The notes under the pieces were generated by a model. That model ran no database searches. It had not been told where the DNA came from and saw only the letters and a program-made list of their open reading frames with translations. Of a stretch of DNA of 64,000 nt, positions 16,937-39,730 are shown in pieces. Position 1 is the first letter of the stretch. Every line of letters starts with the position of its first letter. The DNA is from Apostichopus japonicus (lineage: Eukaryota; Echinodermata; Holothuroidea; Aspidochirotida; Stichopodidae). The translations under genes were made by a program, and so were the position numbers. The stretch is taken from assembly GCF_037975245.1 (NCBI RefSeq), contig NC_092571.1, forward strand, positions 26,984,564-27,048,563. Direction: 5' to 3'.

Positions 16937-17204
16937 CGTATGTATGTATGTATGTATGTATGTATGTATGTATATGTGATCTTCCCGCAAGCAGGAACTC
17001 GCGAAAGAAGCCATGGAGGCTTATAGACTCGCAAGCTGACCGAAGCCAATCTCTCGGCACACATCCATTTAACGTCCATGTCGGGAAGTTGTTATTGAAC
17101 AACACCCTTGCCAGACGACACACATTGCTGTCGGCGGGGAATCGAACCGGGGATCTCATGACTGGGAGACGCCGGCGTTAACCACTAGGCTATACACTCC
17201 GCCT
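16937..17204 (-). mobile_element. tRNA-headed SINE with (CATA)n tail
   Basis: On the minus strand it starts near 17204. The pol III A box TAGCCTAGTGG is at 17182-17192 and the B box GGTTCGATTCC at 17138-17148, spaced as in a tRNA, followed by a non-tRNA body and a (CATA)n tail at 16937-16973. GGAGTGTATAGGC is doubled at the head. It would be transcribed by RNA polymerase III and mobilised by a partner LINE, which is not identified. Target duplications could not be read with confidence. Confidence 0.85.
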
Positions 17205-17321
17205 ATACACTCCGTCACCCTCATCAGGAATGAAATGCTCCGTCCTTCGTCTTCGTCTTCGATACGGTGACACATCCGCAAAAAGGGACAATATCTCACC
17301 ACACACACGTCAAGAGAGTAA

Positions 17322-18701
17322 TTAATTAGATCTGACCCGAGTACTGATATAAGTGACAGGATTCACAGAACCACTGGAACTACTAATGAGGTCTGAAGGC
17401 AGACTATTCCAATCCCTAATTGTATTTGGAAAAAAACTATACTTATAGCAATTTGTACTGGCATACAGCTGGCAGAAATGCATATCATGCATGTTCCGAC
17501 TCCTACGCAGAGGCTTTCTTAGGCAGTCAATAGGGATCTGAGCCTGACCATAGATGCCCTTAGCAAATAAGATGATTCTACTTTGTCTGCGCCTCTCTGC
17601 CAAGGGCACCAGGTTTAGGTCCCGTAACAGAGATGAGACAGAGCCAGGCTCTCTTGAATAATCTGAAGCGATGAAACGGGCTGCACGCCTCTGAATGTTT
17701 TCGAGGTTGTGCTGCAAGAAAGCTTGGTGGGGATCCCAGACAGAACTGGCATATTCCAATACTGGCAGGAGGAGACCTTTATATGCAGCCAATTTTGCAT
17801 CCTTCGAACAGGGGGATAAGTTTCTACGAAGAACTCCCAATATCCTATTTCCTTTATTACACACATTTTGAATATGCTTTCCCCAGTTGAGATCTGAAGT
17901 GATATGAATACCCAGATATTTAACACAATCAACCTTAACCAAGTGAACCCCATTGAGCATGTAATTGAAAATTACAGGTTTCCTCTTTCTAGTAATGGTC
18001 ATAATGTTACATTTCACCGGCTGGAAACTCATGCCCCAATCTTTAGCCCATTGCCCTAGTATATTTATATCTTCCTGAAGTTGATGACCATCACTGACAT
18101 CATCGATAACCCGATAACAGACACAGTCATCAGCGAACAGTCGGACACCAGAAGAAACAGCATTACCAATATCATTTATGTAGGCCAGGAAGAGAATGGG
18201 TCCCAGAACTGACCCTTGCGGAACACCGGAAGTAACCTTAGAAGGATTAGACCTAGACCCATTGACAACAACCGACTGCTCTCTATCACTCAGAAAAGCA
18301 TCCACCCAGCAGAGAACCTGATGTGAAACACCCATAGTGTACAGTTTAGATTTCAATAATTCGTGAGGAACAGTGTCAAAAGCCTTCTCAAAATCAAGGA
18401 TGAAGACATCCACTTGCTTTCTTTGGTCAAGGGAGGAGGCCCATTCGTTGATGACAGAAACGAGCTGGGTCTCGCAGCTATGGTATTTCCTGAATGCATG
18501 CTGATTGGCAGACAAGATGTTATTATTCTGGAAATGCTCCATGATATTAGAACTGATTATGTGCTCCAAGAGCTTGCAGCAGATACTAGTAAGGGAAACA
18601 GGGCGATAATTACATGGCGAGGATACATCATTCTTCTTATATATGGGGCAGATGTTAGCAGTTCTCCAATCCAGACACTTTCGATGGAATGCCTTGATCG
18701 T
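17322..18701 (-). CDS. LINE reverse transcriptase, 5'-truncated (FADD type)
   Basis: A single frame of about 460 codons runs from 18701 (no ATG; a stop lies just upstream) to 17322. Early RT motifs are present: WRTANICPIYKK and NYRPVSLTS near 18650-18600, then DFEKAFDTVPHELL, SGVPQGSVLGPILFLAYIND, the catalytic FADD (in RLFADDCVCY), and the thumb/C-terminal KYLGIHI and WNSLPSDL. These place it in the Jockey/CR1-like non-LTR group. The endonuclease and N-terminal RT regions are missing, typical of incomplete reverse transcription during insertion. The intact RT portion suggests a fairly recent copy. About 40 nt of 3' UTR follow to roughly 17280. It lies about 100 bp from the SINE head; a functional link is not shown. 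Confidence 0.9.
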   Translation of the reverse strand, partial: TIKAFHRKCLDWRTANICPIYKKNDVSSPCNYRPVSLTSICCKLLEHIISSNIMEHFQNNNILSANQHAFRKYHSCETQLVSVINEWASSLDQRKQVDVFILDFEKAFDTVPHELLKSKLYTMGVSHQVLCWVDAFLSDREQSVVVNGSRSNPSKVTSGVPQGSVLGPILFLAYINDIGNAVSSGVRLFADDCVCYRVIDDVSDGHQLQEDINILGQWAKDWGMSFQPVKCNIMTITRKRKPVIFNYMLNGVHLVKVDCVKYLGIHITSDLNWGKHIQNVCNKGNRILGVLRRNLSPCSKDAKLAAYKGLLLPVLEYASSVWDPHQAFLQHNLENIQRRAARFIASDYSREPGSVSSLLRDLNLVPLAERRRQSRIILFAKGIYGQAQIPIDCLRKPLRRSRNMHDMHFCQLYASTNCYKYSFFPNTIRDWNSLPSDLISSSSGSVNPVTYISTRVRSN

Positions 18702-19211: not shown

Positions 19212-22200
19212 ATGGAACAGTTGGCTCCAAATCATGAGTTTGAATCGTTTGCAAGTTTTCAGCGTTTTTTTCAAGAATTTTGCTCAACAAAGAACTATAT
19301 TTATTGTATTGGAGACAGCAGAACAGCCACCTACGCTAATAAAAACTTGCCACAGGATTCAACACCCTTCAACGCTGCTAAATTCAAGTACTCATATGTC
19401 AAGTATGTGTGTAAACACTACGGTGAGAAGAAAAAAACAGAGAGCAAAGGGATTCGCCCAAATCAAAGGTTTGTTTAATGTTTCAAAGTAGCTATTCTTA
19501 CGACTGTTCGTAAGAATAATTTCCGACTACGCATGCGCAGTTGCTATTTTTATGACAGGAGTAACAATAATATCCGGTTAGGGTTAGTGTTAGGATTGGG
19601 GTTTAGGGTTAAAGTTAGGGTTACCCCTACTACATGCGCAGTTGCTTTATTTACTTAAATGCGCTTGAATTCGCCTTTGTCGTAAGAATAGTTATAAATA
19701 ATTGTTACGACTAGTCGTAAGAATAGCCAAGGCCGTAATGTTTATGCACTTGTCAATTGTATGACGTACCACAGGTCCCCCGGGGATGGGTGCGTCATTT
19801 GCATCCTTGAGTCTTGACGCACCCCTGCGTAGTATATTTAATGTACCTGACCATTGCATATTTTTACACACCTTAATTTTATTTTGTGATGCACCAAATG
19901 GGGCAAATGACTGCATGTCCTTATGACGCACATACACTGTGTAAATACTACTAATAGTAATACTGTACTACGTTCCAATATTTGCTTTACCACCTTTCAT
20001 AGGGAAATACAAGTTACAAGTGACGCATCCATTTCTTATAGCGTGACGGACCATTACTTTAGTGTACTTTGACACACCCCGCACCCCTGCGTCCAAATTT
20101 GACTGGACATGACGCACCCATTGGTTCTGTGGTCTGTCATGCAATTGACAAGTGCATCAATCATTTATCATAATCTAGACGCTTGACTCATTAACGTATA
20201 GGGCACGCTACCATTGATTTTCATATCGGTGCTTTGCGATAGGCTGCATAGGAAAAACCTAAAATTGTGTCGATTTTTGTTTTTTTTAAAAAAAAACTAT
20301 CACATCGCCCCATGCCAATTACAAATTTGATCTTCAAATTGGCCAAGAATGCCCACACCCCTCCCATGAATCCCATTCCAAATCCTATCATCAGCCTGCC
20401 TCTTCCATGCAGTGGGTGGGGCTTAAAGTGAAAATCATGAAATGGACATATTTTGGCAACCGAATGTCCATTGCTTTTTTCATATTGTTATCTCACTTGG
20501 AACACTGGTAGCCCTTGAATAGCAGATTGTTTGTGGTGACAATGTGATGCATATCAATGAGTGAGCAGGGCTTTAAGTGCTAATCTTTAAATGGTCATAA
20601 TTTGACAGTCAAGTGTTCCATTTGTTTTTGTATACAATGTGAAAACAGCAGCGCCGGAACCACATAACCTTTTCGTCATTGTATTAACATTTTATCATAT
20701 TTAACAACAACAAAATTTCTGCTGCTCATTTTTAGTTCTGCCTTTTTTTTAAAAGAACATTTACTTTCTTTTTTCCAGAACTTTCAAAACGGGTTGCAAG
20801 TCATTCATTCATCTCGCTGCTGACAGAGTAAAAGACAAGCTTGTTGTTGTTTCTTGTGAGCTTGAACACACACATGAGACGAGTGAAGAACACTATCAGC
20901 GATATCCAGAAAGCAGAAGACTGTCTGAAGAGAGAAAGGAAATAGTAGGTACTTTATCTGCATTATCCGTGGCTCCCGCTGATATCTGCCAACATATAGC
21001 CAAACTGCATGGTAAGATACTGACAGTTCAAGATATTCAGAATGTAAGAAATGAGGGGAAAACAAAACATGAACTAAACAGCATTCTGGAAGTTTTAGGA
21101 GAGTTTTGCCAGAAACATGAAGAGAATACTGTAGTACTAAAGACAAGCAGTGATGGAGAGCTCCAGGGAATATTTCTCCAAAGTGTGGAACACAAACAAA
21201 GCCATGTGAAATTCCCAGAGTTGGTTCACATTGATGGAACCTACAGGGTTAATAATAGGAAGTTCTGCCTATATACAGCTCTGGTGGAAGATGGCAATGG
21301 ACATGGTGTTCCCGTCGGGTATGCGCTATTGAAAGATGAGTCGAAAGAAAGTATCAACTTTTTTCTGAAGACTCTAAAAGATTCAAATGAGGGCATGACC
21401 AGAGCAAGAACATTTATTATTGACAAAGATTTCACTGAAATAGCAGTTTTGAGTGAATTATTTCCTGTGGCCAACATTCAACTTTGCCTTTTCCATGTGC
21501 TTAACTTTTCGCCTGGCGATTAATAAATTGGCAACGACAGAAGATGTAAAGCAGGCAATAAGGACTTGCATACAGTCTATTGCTTATGCCAACTATGAGG
21601 AGATATTCAACCAGTCAGTGAAGAATATGGAGGAAGTTGCCACATCTGACTTTATTAAGTACTTTCATGACAATTGGAGCAGTTGTGTTCATCTTTGGGC
21701 CGCTTTCAAAACAAAATCGTACCAGAACCTGAGAACCCGCACCAACAATCGCTTAGAGCGTCACAACAAGGAACTGAAAACTGTTTTAAACAGTCAAATA
21801 ACAATTGCAGATTGCATCAAGGGGATACTAAGGAAGGCTATCCACATGAAGAACAAAACTACACAGGGTCAATTTCTTTCTTCGGTTTGTGTTTCATATA
21901 ATGTCCATGATACAAATGACACAATAAAACAAATCCGGAATGTTGCAACACAATATGCAGCAAACTTGACGATAAATCAATATCAACTGGCACAACAGCT
22001 AAAGCCGAATGCAGCTGTCGTAATTAATGCATCACATTATTCAGTTTCGCTTCAGGGCAATTTGGCAGAAGTTGAAGTTAACCCGAAATGCTCTTGTTCA
22101 TGCAGTTTTTGGAAGATCACACAACTGCCGTGCCGACATATATTTATCATTGCATTACAAGAAAATCTGCAATTTGATGACAACTGGATACCCGATAGAT

Positions 22201-25200
22201 GGCGCAAGTCCTATCAGAGACAAGCTTTTGATTTCCCATGTTCAACTACAGCTGGTATTTTTGTAACATCCACTGAAACCAAGAAGTTGAACAGAATTCA
22301 GAAGTTCAAGAAAATGCAGCAAACACTGCTTAAAATTGGTGACATTTGCTCAGAAGTTTCACAAGAGGAGTTTGAACACAGGTTCCAGCAAGTAAGCACT
22401 CTCTATCAGGCATGGGAGAAAGGTCTGACTGTCAACATTGAGGTAGATTTAGTCCACTTAGAAATAAATCAGGCAAGCACAGATGTGGACAAAGATGAGC
22501 AGAATTCAAACAGCCATTCCTCCAGTCAAACCAGTTCAAAACTAGATGATAACACTTCAGCAGTCAGTAACATTAAAAAGTCAGACAGCCTTTCAGCAAG
22601 CAATGACATAAGAATTTCAGACAACACTTCGGCAGGCAGTGACATCATCAAATCAGACAGCACTTCAGCAGTTAGTAACATCAGAAAATCAGTCGACACT
22701 CCAGCAGGAAGTGACGTCAGAGACTCAGACAACACATCAGCAGGCAGTGACGTCAGAAATTCAGATACTTATACAGGCAATGATGTCAGACAATCAGACC
22801 ATAATACATCAGCAGGTAGTGATGTTAGAAAGTCAGGTAACACTCCAGCAGGAAGTGACATCAGAAAATCTGATGATAAAACTTCAGCAGGCAGTGACAA
22901 AACAAAATCAGTGAGTCCAGAGAATAAGACAAAGCAAAACCTCAAGAGAAAAACACCATTTCAACTGGAAAAGGATGGATTGTACTTGCCACGACTATCA
23001 AAAGTCAGGGGACGACCCAAGGGGAGTATGACCTCGGTTCTAGGAATTAGCAAAAGGAAATCACCACCAGTTGATAACACATCAAAGATTGCAGATGTTG
23101 GTCAACGTAGTAAGCGACAGATTAAGACCTCTGAAGAATCTCAAAAGAAGAAGCTAAAGAAGAATAAAGTAAAGTTGGTACAGACGAAACAGGTTACAAA
23201 TAAAGAACTGGAGAGAAACTTGGAAACATACACTGATGTATCAAATTTGAAGGCAGTATTAGCATTCCTGTCTGAAATTAGACTCAATATTTCAAAAGGT
23301 ATCAATGGAAGCTTGAAATTGTTGAAAATAGACTCACATGATCCTGCTAATGGAATCATATATGAAGCTGCTCAAGACAGTGATCTTGAAACTGTTTCTG
23401 ATACTATATTGAATCTTTCATCAACACTAATTCAGGGAGAAACACCTGGAAGGCGGACAGATTTGTTTCAGCTCTTGAGCTCAACTGTTCTGATTGCAGT
23501 GAAGGATGGTTTAGACATATCATCTATAAAGCAAATGCTGACTAAGAGGCCATCACATCTTGCTGATCTCCCAGAGACAGTGGTCAGTATACCCAAGGAG
23601 AAAAGAAAACTTGGAAGCACCACATTTGTTCCAACTGATTTGGAAACACTTCTACCTGGCAAGTGGCTTAATGATCAGGTAAGGGTTGAATATGACTTTG
23701 TATATGAAAATGTGCTCTAAATTATTTTCAGATATTTATTGACTTCACTATTGAATCAAGTTGAAGTGAAGCAAAAGTGCTATGCACACATAGTAATTGC
23801 TGGAAAAATAGTTGAACAATGATATTTGCCCTGAATACATGTGCATGAAAAATAATGAAAGAAATGTGCCATTAGCAAATTTACCAAACATGGGACACTC
23901 ATACTTTTGTGATCATTGCTGCCTTAGTGTGAATATGTTTCAAGTTTAATATTCAATAGAAGACGGACAGTTAGAGGTGCTTAAATTTGTCTGCCTCTAG
24001 ATCTTGAAACAAAAAGCATCAAAAGATTTGCTTGAATGTGATCAAATTGTGTCCTACAGTGCCAGTGTGCTGCTTGTACTGTCAGAAAATACTTTTTATA
24101 AAACTTTTATAAAAGATTTATAAAGCTTTCTTTACATTGCAATAGTTAAGATAAGAAAAATATTCAATAATTCAGTCAAGCAGCTTGCATTTCTCTTGGT
24201 TGTTGAGATGCAAGAACCCTTTTAAGCAAATACACCATGTTAACATGATTGGAAAGTTAGGCCTATTGCTGCAAAAGACTGCATTGAAGTGCATATATAG
24301 AGCTTGTTGTAAACTATCTCAAAGCACTTTACAATTATGACCCTGGTCACTGGGCCTTAACACTCCTGAAACCATTCTCAACTCACTGAGGAGTATACTG
24401 TGTGTACACTCTAAAACATGTGCAGCTTTAGTCAAAGGCTACATTGAAGTTGGATGTATTTTAGCTGAAAGTACATCAATTAATAAGGGGCTATATACTT
24501 AAAAACTACTGTATGTTTGAAGTTGAGACAAATTTTTATATCTTCCAGATCATACACTGCTACTTGAATTTACTAATGCAGGAGCACCCTGGAAAGTGCT
24601 ATGTGTTACCTTGCTTCTTGGCCATGAAATGGCAAAAAGGTCAATACCAAGACTGGCTGTACAAGAAGGTAAGCATCAATATTGATATATAAATTAACAC
24701 TCTCATAATAAAGCTGTGTGTCCGTAGTGCGTAATCTGTGAAGGCAAATTGTTCTCATTGATTCAACGTTATGTTGTTTCCACGTGTCCATAACGTAAAT
24801 TGGAAACACCCTAATGTGAAATCAATGAGAGTGACTAGTCTTTACAGATCACGCATCACACCCTTCAGACACATGGAAAACATGTTAAGCTTAAAATTGC
24901 CTTTTTTATACTATCATAAATTCAACACTTAGTTTATGAATTAGATAATTAATAGTTACTGCAATTTCAAATAAATGTATTCAGTGGTCTGTGGATGACA
25001 AATAACCAAAAATATATATACCTGTATATTCCTAAGATAAACTTAGTACAACATACAGTTTAAGAGGTTAGATGGATACAATACTCATTTCATCACTTAC
25101 TTGAAGGTTGAATATTCAAAAATATTCAAAAATTTCCACTTACTCCACTCAATCTGCCAAGTTTTCTTTTGAAGCTACAGTAATAAACACCATCAATTAT

Positions 25201-39071: not shown

Positions 39072-39279
39072 GAATAAGGTGTATACTTTTTAAGAAAAAG
39101 TCGCCCAGGACGAACCTGGGCACGAAAACCAAACTACTGAACAACTGATCCGCTTCTAACCCCAGTCCCCTTGCATCGGGACTGTGACTGTGTGATCATC
39201 GTCAGGTGTGCATCACCATTCCCCTCGAAAGGGAACAGATACTACACATGATCTTAGCCAAAAGGCGAATAAGGTGTAT
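39072..39279 (-). mobile_element. Retroposon with a U2 snRNA-derived head
   Basis: GAATAAGGTGTAT, 13 bp, flanks the insert at 39072-39084 and 39267-39279. The insert, 39085-39266 (182 nt, minus strand), begins with 34 nt matching the U2 snRNA 5' region: GCCTTTTGGCTAAGATC, then a run through GTGTAGTATCTGTTC, the branch-point-recognition segment, with one mismatch to vertebrate U2. The first ~11 U2 nt are missing. After it the sequence departs from U2 and forms hairpins: CCCTTTCGAGGG, CAGTCCC..GGGACTG, and GCCCAGG-TTCGT-CCTGGGC, then TTTTT (a pol III stop) and a short ACTTTTTCTTAAAAAGT end. A small, structured, retroposed RNA gene family is the best reading. Confidence 0.75.
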
Positions 39280-39299
39280 GTGTCTGGCTTTTTGCTGCC

Positions 39300-39730
39300 C
39301 TGCGAATAAGATGACTATGTCCGGCTATTCGCAGGGCAGCCCTGCGAATAAGATGTCTGTGTCCGGCTATTCGCAGGGCTGCCCAACGAATAAGATGTCT
39401 GTGTTCGCTTATTCGCAGGGCTGCCCTGCGAATAAGATGTCTGTGTCCGGCTATTCGCAGGGCTGCCCTACGAATAAGATGTCTGTGTTCGCTTATTCGC
39501 AGGGCTGCCCTGCGAATAAGATGTCTATGTCCGGCTATTCGCAGGGCTGCCCTGCGAATAAGATGTCTGTGTTCGCTTATTCGCAGGGCTGCCCTGCGAA
39601 TAAGATGTCTATTTCCGGCTATTCGCAGGGCTGCCCTGCGAATAAGATGTCTGTGTTCGCTTATTCGCAGGGCTGCCCTGCGAATAAGATGTCTATGTCC
39701 GGCTATTCGCAGGGCTGCCCTGCGAATAAG
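39300..39730. repeat. 42-bp palindromic minisatellite, about 10 units, in alternating dimers
   Basis: Unit about CTGCGAATAAGATGTCTGTG then TCCGGCTATTCGCAGGGCTGCC. Units alternate between TCCGGCTATTC and TTCGCTTATTC forms, an 84-bp higher-order period. Each junction TTCGCAGGGCTGCCCTGCGAA is a near-perfect 21-bp palindrome. Because 42 is a multiple of 3, frames stay open on both strands (39206-39772 plus, 39254-39739 minus) as 14-residue repeats; these are not thought to be genes. Confidence 0.95.

What the first reader, a model, noticed from the sequence alone, without database searches (positions are those of the whole stretch)
39072..39279. Small retroposon whose head is the 5' region of U2 snRNA
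Seen: 34 nt on the minus strand match U2 through the branch-point-recognition segment, followed by about 148 nt that are not U2 but fold into several GC-rich hairpins (two with UUCG loops), then TTTTT. A 13-bp direct repeat flanks the 182-nt insert. Known: SINEs with U1 or U2 heads have been described in other animals, and snRNA 3' processing or template switching can make chimeras. Inference: an unnamed snRNA-headed SINE family, or a retroposed copy of a small RNA that carries U2's branch-point-recognition sequence and so could pair with introns.
Basis: partly seen in the sequence, partly recalled or inferred. Interest (0 to 1): 0.82.

Follow-up and report, generated by a model that had tools for sequence, protein, structure and literature searches.

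The report
U2 snRNA-headed SINE family in echinoderm
This is one copy of a family of more than a thousand short jumping DNA elements in a probable echinoderm genome; each full-length element starts with the first 45 letters of the splicing RNA U2, a rare kind of origin for such elements.

Summary
Minus strand 39266-39085 is a 182-nt retroposon with a perfect 13-bp target-site duplication. Its first 34 nt equal nt 12-45 of the host's own U2 snRNA genes. It is a 5'-truncated copy of a ~195-nt SINE whose full-length copies begin exactly at U2 nucleotide 1. The head-body junction occurs at 1,205 places and the mid-body at 1,757 in the 672-Mb genome (2 or fewer mismatches; reversed controls 0). Of 64 non-redundant copies, 26 have strict duplications of 8 bp or more, against 0.2% with mismatched flanks. 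Some copies are nearly identical to the consensus, so activity looks recent. The host is probably an echinoderm (mitochondrial code). New here: the body folds back on the U2 head and pairs about 33-35 of its 45 nt, including the branch-point-recognition segment. No tRNA-type promoter, no U2 promoter end upstream and no tail-sharing LINE was found. The closest known kind is SINEU, the snRNA-headed SINEs of crocodilians (recalled). I rate it a new family of that known kind.

The parts
39085..39266 (-). U2-headed SINE copy, 182 nt, 5'-truncated by 11 nt
   Evidence: 3 differences (2 substitutions, one 1-nt gap) from the working family consensus over 183 columns; 1,205 junction and 1,757 mid-body places in the genome
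39233..39266 (-). Head: identical to host U2 snRNA nt 12-45, including the branch-point-recognition segment
   Evidence: Exact match to host U2; host U2 genes
39146..39232 (-). Body: part that in full-length copies pairs with the U2 head (consensus 46-132)
   Evidence: 33-35 of 45 head nt paired with the body; 0-2 of 300 shuffles reach this. This truncated copy itself folds differently
39085..39145 (-). 3' tail: hairpin 39103-39121, terminal hairpin 39085-39101 (ACUUUUUCUUAAAAAGU), no poly(A)
   Evidence: Sequence, folds; the last 27 nt found with 2 or fewer mismatches at 808 places
39267..39279 (.). Target-site duplication, copy at the element's 5' side (GAATAAGGTGTAT)
   Evidence: Identical to 39072-39084
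39072..39084 (.). Target-site duplication, copy at the element's 3' side
   Evidence: Identical to 39267-39279

Best explanation
It is a copy of a non-autonomous retrotransposon (SINE) family of about 195 nt: U2 snRNA nt 1-45 as head, an 87-nt body that folds back on the head, and a ~65-nt tail with two hairpins and no poly(A). SHOWN: more than a thousand dispersed copies; exact start at U2 +1 in full-length copies; target duplications in many copies; 5' truncations; at least two subfamilies, the younger with near-identical copies. INFERRED: an RNA starting at U2's own first nucleotide is reverse-transcribed at a nicked target by an APE-type LINE in trans, beginning at the ...AAAAAGU 3' end. 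INFERRED, weaker: the head is kept because it sets the RNA's 5' end (snRNA-type initiation or capping) and because it forms half of the RNA's main helical domain, so that mutations on either side would unfold the RNA. The partner LINE and the promoter remain unidentified.
For: BLASTN of the window element gave 44 matches on 18 contigs (40 of 2,521 first-look candidates scored), 40 of them at 94-100% identity. Head-body junction 1,205 places, mid-body 1,757, tail 808, reversed controls 0 each. Host U2 nt 1-45 equals the head of full-length copies. Target duplications: 47 of 86 copies with 8 bp or more by a lenient rule, control 1.6%; 26 of 64 non-redundant copies by a strict rule, control 0.2%; 19 of those 26 start with AT. 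32 of 86 copies (21 of 64 non-redundant) start at U2 nt 1, the others at later points down to index 29. Non-CpG divergence 0.018 (29 copies) and 0.040 (43 copies) from own consensus. Head-body pairing exceeds shuffles in both subfamilies.
Against: No LINE with the same tail was found: 12 places have the tail hairpin with foreign letters before it, and the four fetched were two bare tail fragments, a mutated full SINE and a cluster of old SINE fragments; 13 places have only the terminal 20 nt, against 17 in the reversed control. No A or B box better than shuffles, and three T-runs of 4 or more that could stop Pol III. No transcript data. By the strict rule 38 of 64 copies have no exact duplication of 8 bp or more, and 27 of 64 none of 6 bp or more; some of these are old copies.
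Confidence: 0.93

Rival explanations
1. A functional small RNA carrying U2's branch-point-recognition sequence that pairs with introns, of which this is a retrocopy.
For: The U2 segment GUGUAGUAUCUG is intact in the family consensus; the RNA is predicted to be strongly structured (z -4.2 and -4.6).
Against: Copies are dispersed over many contigs. The branch-point segment is predicted to be paired with the body. U2 beyond nt 45 is missing (alignment). No RNA data were available either way.
Confidence: 0.04
2. Retropseudogenes: independent chimeras made by template switching from U2 to other RNAs, not a self-propagating family.
For: U2 sequence at the 5' end with a non-U2 3' part; LINE-mediated snRNA chimeras are known (recalled).
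Against: The same junction recurs at 1,205 places and the same body at 1,757, with subfamily-diagnostic substitutions: a family with source genes, not independent events.
Confidence: 0.02
3. The SINE arose when a U2-targeting non-LTR element (Keno or Utopia type) or another insertion landed in a U2 gene, so that the U2 5' end plus element-derived body were co-transcribed.
For: The host's U2 array carries a Keno-like element (APE endonuclease) whose U2 flank resumes at nt 38/39, and other units broken after U2 nt 31 and nt 50; the SINE head ends at nt 45. Utopia and Keno share the nt-39 site, and Utopia occurs in echinoderms (PMC4640811).
Against: Head ends at 45, not 38; no convincing similarity between the SINE body or tail and the Keno-like 5' or 3' end regions (alignment scores 36 and 23, no shuffle control). 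None of 7 Keno-like 3' junctions lies in a SINE head. The insertions at nt 31 and 50 were not identified.
Confidence: 0.06
4. The body is a decayed inverted copy of the U2 head (fold-back origin by strand switching near U2 nt 50).
For: Predicted pairing is colinear from the hairpin near nt 46-52 back to nt 3 of the head in both subfamily consensuses.
Against: Sequence identity of the body to the reverse complement of U2 1-45 or 1-50 is not significant (p 0.08-0.14), and a control segment, U2 51-100, scores about as well (p 0.08) for the young consensus.
Confidence: 0.15

Closest known systems
SINEU (SINEs with U1- or U2-derived heads, crocodilians; Kojima 2015, GBE 7:1702, doi 10.1093/gbe/evv100)
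   Same: SINE with an snRNA-derived 5' head. The class is listed in Repbase (PMC5753468 and PMC4455052, passages) and mentioned in PMC8010984 (passage). U1/U2 heads in crocodilians are recalled; the paper itself is not held.
SINE2/tRNA, SINE1/7SL, SINE3/5S
   Same: Size, dispersion, target duplications, 5' truncation.
   Different: Head is U2 snRNA; no A/B box above chance.
U-snRNA retropseudogenes (e.g. U6 or U2 pseudogenes)
   Same: Contain snRNA sequence.
   Different: Here U2 1-45 is fused to one constant non-U2 body at 1,205 junction places, without poly(A).
Keno / Utopia U2-targeting non-LTR retrotransposons (PMC4640811)
   Same: Linked to the same part of U2 (site at nt 39; section 6 read).
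   Different: They insert into U2 genes and encode proteins; this element carries U2 sequence inside itself and is dispersed.

Membership tests
SINEU (snRNA-headed SINE) | 5' head derived from an snRNA gene | tested here: met
   Head 1-45 identical to host U2 1-45
SINEU (snRNA-headed SINE) | Multi-copy family propagated from source elements, with subfamilies | tested here: met
   1,205 junctions and 1,757 mid-bodies; co-varying diagnostic positions 67, 121-123, 140, 176 in 89 copies
SINEU (snRNA-headed SINE) | Shared body/tail sequence with crocodilian SINEU families | not testable with these tools
   Paper not held and no Repbase sequences among the tools
SINE in general | Target-site duplications from target-primed reverse transcription | tested here: met
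   26 of 64 non-redundant copies with 8 bp or more by a strict rule, control 0.2%; 47 of 86 by a lenient rule, control 1.6%
SINE in general | Internal Pol III promoter (A and B box) | tested here: not met
   Best A-box and B-box matches equalled by 298-300 of 300 shuffles. Consensus matching only; whether SINEU has such boxes I do not recall
SINE in general | 3' tail shared with a partner LINE | tested here: inconclusive
   No tail-sharing LINE within 2 mismatches; a diverged or extinct partner is not excluded
tRNA-headed SINE (SINE2) | tRNA-derived head with boxes A and B | tested here: not met
   Head is U2; boxes at chance level
U2 retropseudogene | U2 sequence with poly(A), no constant foreign body | tested here: not met
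   Constant body and hairpin tail, no poly(A), in the 30 best matches; 1,205 identical-type junctions

The most novel reading that the evidence does not exclude
A SINE that spreads by imitating U2 biogenesis: the RNA starts at U2's own +1, is made by snRNA-type (not tRNA-type) transcription, and its body has evolved, or arose as a fold-back copy, to clasp U2's 5' end. The branch-point segment would thus be hidden, and the U2 head would be both the 5' end and one strand of the RNA's main helical domain.
Probability: 0.2. Interest if true: 0.65.

Novelty: new member of a known kind. Interest (0 to 1): 0.48.

Why it matters
snRNA-headed SINEs were, to my recollection, known only from crocodilians. 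None of the listed papers in the searches made here described one in echinoderms. Papers listed of papers found: 30 of 48, 15 of 2,696, 8 of 8, 20 of 1,746, 6 of 6, 15 of 15, 12 of 90. The library holds only open-licence PubMed Central text, so this is weak evidence of absence. An independent case in a distant phylum would show that U2's 5' end is a reusable SINE head. It sharpens an open question: how a SINE whose head comes from a gene with (as recalled) an external Pol II promoter is transcribed at all, since the full-length copies examined carry neither A/B boxes above chance nor a shared upstream block. Near-identical copies make this testable.

Tried and rejected
Partner LINE by shared tail: none. 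Of the 12 places I fetched four (L102-L105): two bare 38-nt tail fragments without an obvious RT frame in the 1.5 kb before them, one mutated full-length SINE and a cluster of old SINE fragments.

Source copies behind a real U2 promoter: patterns joining the last 13 nt upstream of either U2 gene type to the SINE head gave 0 and 0 matches at up to 3 mismatches. Only those 13 nt of two promoter types and the young head-body junction were tested.

Inverted-copy origin by identity: not significant (p 0.08-0.14 for U2 1-45 and 1-50, 0.16-0.18 for 1-60), and the control segment U2 51-100 gave p 0.08 with the young consensus, although pairing is above shuffles. Keno-like element as source of body or tail: no convincing similarity. 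SINE heads as landing sites for the Keno-like element: 0 of 7 junctions.

Rfam on the window: 0 families at gathering score. Rfam on L003: U2 for the head; the other four listed matches have E 5.9-8.4.

The covariation support is thin: two subfamily consensuses, and an older 17-copy subset of the second, share the fold, with the GAG/AGA difference at 121-123 re-registering one helix. No formal pair count was run.

My first duplication count (47 of 86) let letters of the element count and included clustered and duplicated copies; the stricter recount is (26 of 64). The truncation point at U2 nt 23 shrank from 7 of 86 to 3 of 64 in that recount.

Full report
OBSERVATION. On the minus strand, 39266-39085 is a 182-nt insert between identical 13-bp repeats (39072-39084 and 39267-39279). 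Its first 34 nt equal nt 12-45 of this genome's own U2 snRNA genes. Those genes were found with the Rfam U2 model: 46 scored places, all over the cut-off, 42 of them on contig C16, mostly in tandem with a 645-bp spacing (letters of six).

A DISPERSED FAMILY. BLASTN of the insert against the window's own 672-Mb genome listed 44 matches on 18 contigs; 40 of 2,521 first-look candidates were scored. Pattern counts with up to 2 mismatches were 1,205 for the head-body junction, 1,757 for the mid-body and 808 for the tail, on both strands, with 0 for each reversed control. Only the first 100 places of each were listed. The counts differ along the element presumably because each 27-nt pattern tolerates only two changes and because copies are truncated.

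ANATOMY. I fetched the 30 best BLAST matches (L001-L030), 20 stretches chosen from the body and tail lists, among them a tandem cluster (L037-L056), and 40 more from those lists (L057-L096). Of these 90 loci, 89 gave 105 stretches alignable to a working consensus; L081 held only the tail part (consensus 132-196). Full-length copies begin at A1 of U2 and match U2 1-45: ATCGCTTCTCGGCCTTTTGGCTAAGATCATGTGTAGTATCTGTTC, then the body. 92 of 105 stretches end at consensus 194-197...CTTAAAAAGT(ATA), with no poly(A). Of 86 copies of at least 150 nt with an intact 3' end and flanks, 32 start at U2 nt 1; of 64 left after dropping clusters and shared flanks, 21 do. By a strict rule that uses no element letters before the final AT(A), 26 of the 64 have exact target duplications of 8 bp or more and 37 of 6 bp or more, against 0.2% and 2.6% with mismatched flanks; 19 of the 26 start with AT. 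A more lenient rule gave 47 of 86 against 1.6%.

AGE AND SUBFAMILIES. Of 89 aligned copies (L002 and stretches under 150 nt were dropped), 29 carry AGA and 43 carry GAG at 121-123. Mean non-CpG divergence from their own consensus is 0.018 (0.000-0.052) and 0.040 (0.006-0.116). The sampling favours young copies, because L001-L030 were the best BLAST matches and the others were chosen from exact pattern matches. The window copy has 3 differences from the young consensus over 183 columns.

HOST. The COX1 gene on contig C35 reads sensibly with the echinoderm/flatworm mitochondrial code (AAA=N, AGA/AGG=S) and is followed by what I read by eye as nad4L, cox2 and atp8, an order I recall as echinoderm. 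The species is unknown.

STRUCTURE. A full-length copy (L003) folds at -73.9 kcal/mol (z -4.2, 0 of 200 shuffles), and an older-type sequence at -73.5 (z -4.6, 0 of 200). In both, the head pairs with the body: the expected number of head bases paired with the body is 33.2 (young) and 35.2 (old) of 45. With the body shuffled, 2 and 1 of 300 reach this; with the head shuffled, 2 and 0 of 300. Two subfamily consensuses, and an older 17-copy subset of the second, give the same domain. The GAG/AGA difference keeps a helix with U2 nt 3-10 by re-registration. U2's branch-point-recognition segment lies inside this pairing. Identity of the body to the reverse complement of the head is not significant (p 0.08-0.14; a control segment of U2 scored alike), so a fold-back origin is possible but not shown. 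The window copy lacks the first 11 nt and folds differently.

TRANSCRIPTION AND MOBILISATION. A and B boxes match no better than in shuffles, and there are T-runs at 15, 150 and 180. The 80 nt upstream of 35 full-length copies share no block like a promoter: the highest column frequency is 0.60, and several of the 35 are tandem or duplicated copies. No copy lies directly behind the last 13 nt of either tested type of U2 promoter. No other repeat was found to share the tail. How the family is transcribed and which LINE moves it are therefore open; target-primed insertion by an APE-type LINE is inferred from the duplications.

U2 ARRAY. One gap in the array holds an element with a zinc-knuckle ORF1 and an endonuclease-RT ORF2 (Exo_endo_phos, RVT_1; zf-RVT below its cut-off), inserted after U2 nt 30, with U2 resuming at nt 38/39. 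PMC4640811 (section 6 read, other passages seen) gives nt 39 as the site shared by Utopia and Keno, and an APE-like endonuclease as the mark of Keno. I therefore call it Keno-like. Its 3' end joined to U2 occurs 7 times, all in that array, and in no SINE head.

COMPARISON. SINEs with snRNA heads are an accepted class, SINEU (Repbase lists in PMC5753468 and PMC4455052, passages; PMC8010984, passage). The founding paper (10.1093/gbe/evv100) is not held; what I say of its content is recalled. The present family meets the head criterion and the copy-number and duplication criteria, fails the A/B-box test, is inconclusive for a LINE-shared tail, and cannot be compared with SINEU in body or tail. 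Searches of the paper library (listings only, some capped far below the number found) showed no echinoderm snRNA-headed SINE. I file it as a new family of a known kind, with a head-clasping body as its distinctive feature.

Noticed in passing
L106 (G000:C16:31109000-31115600): Keno-like non-LTR retrotransposon inserted in a U2 gene (U2 to nt 30, then element, then U2 from nt 38/39); 7 such 3' junctions, all in the C16 U2 array.
   Followed up: partly
L034, L035 and L036 (rows): Other U2 array units broken after U2 nt 31 (L034) and after nt 50 (L035, L036) by further unidentified DNA.
   Followed up: no
L005, L010, L056: Head-to-tail clusters of the SINE (3, 2 and 9 whole or partial copies).
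   Followed up: partly
window 39294-39730 and L002: 42-bp tandem repeat next to the SINE; a similar block with the same SINE insertion lies on contig C20 (846 of 934 aligned columns identical), so this SINE copy was duplicated with its surroundings.
   Followed up: partly
copies: A recurrent truncation point at U2 nt 23, just after U2 stem I: 7 of 86 copies, but only 3 of 64 after removing clusters and shared flanks. Possibly a reverse-transcriptase stop.
   Followed up: partly
window 17000-17240 (-): tRNA-like sequence with a GGTTCGATTCC box just downstream of the RT frame 17322-18701 (-); looks like a tRNA-headed SINE (by eye; ARAGORN found no tRNA).
   Followed up: no
window 20753-23717 (+): MULE-like transposase with ZSWIM-type RNaseH-like and SWIM zinc-finger domains, split over two frames.
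   Followed up: no
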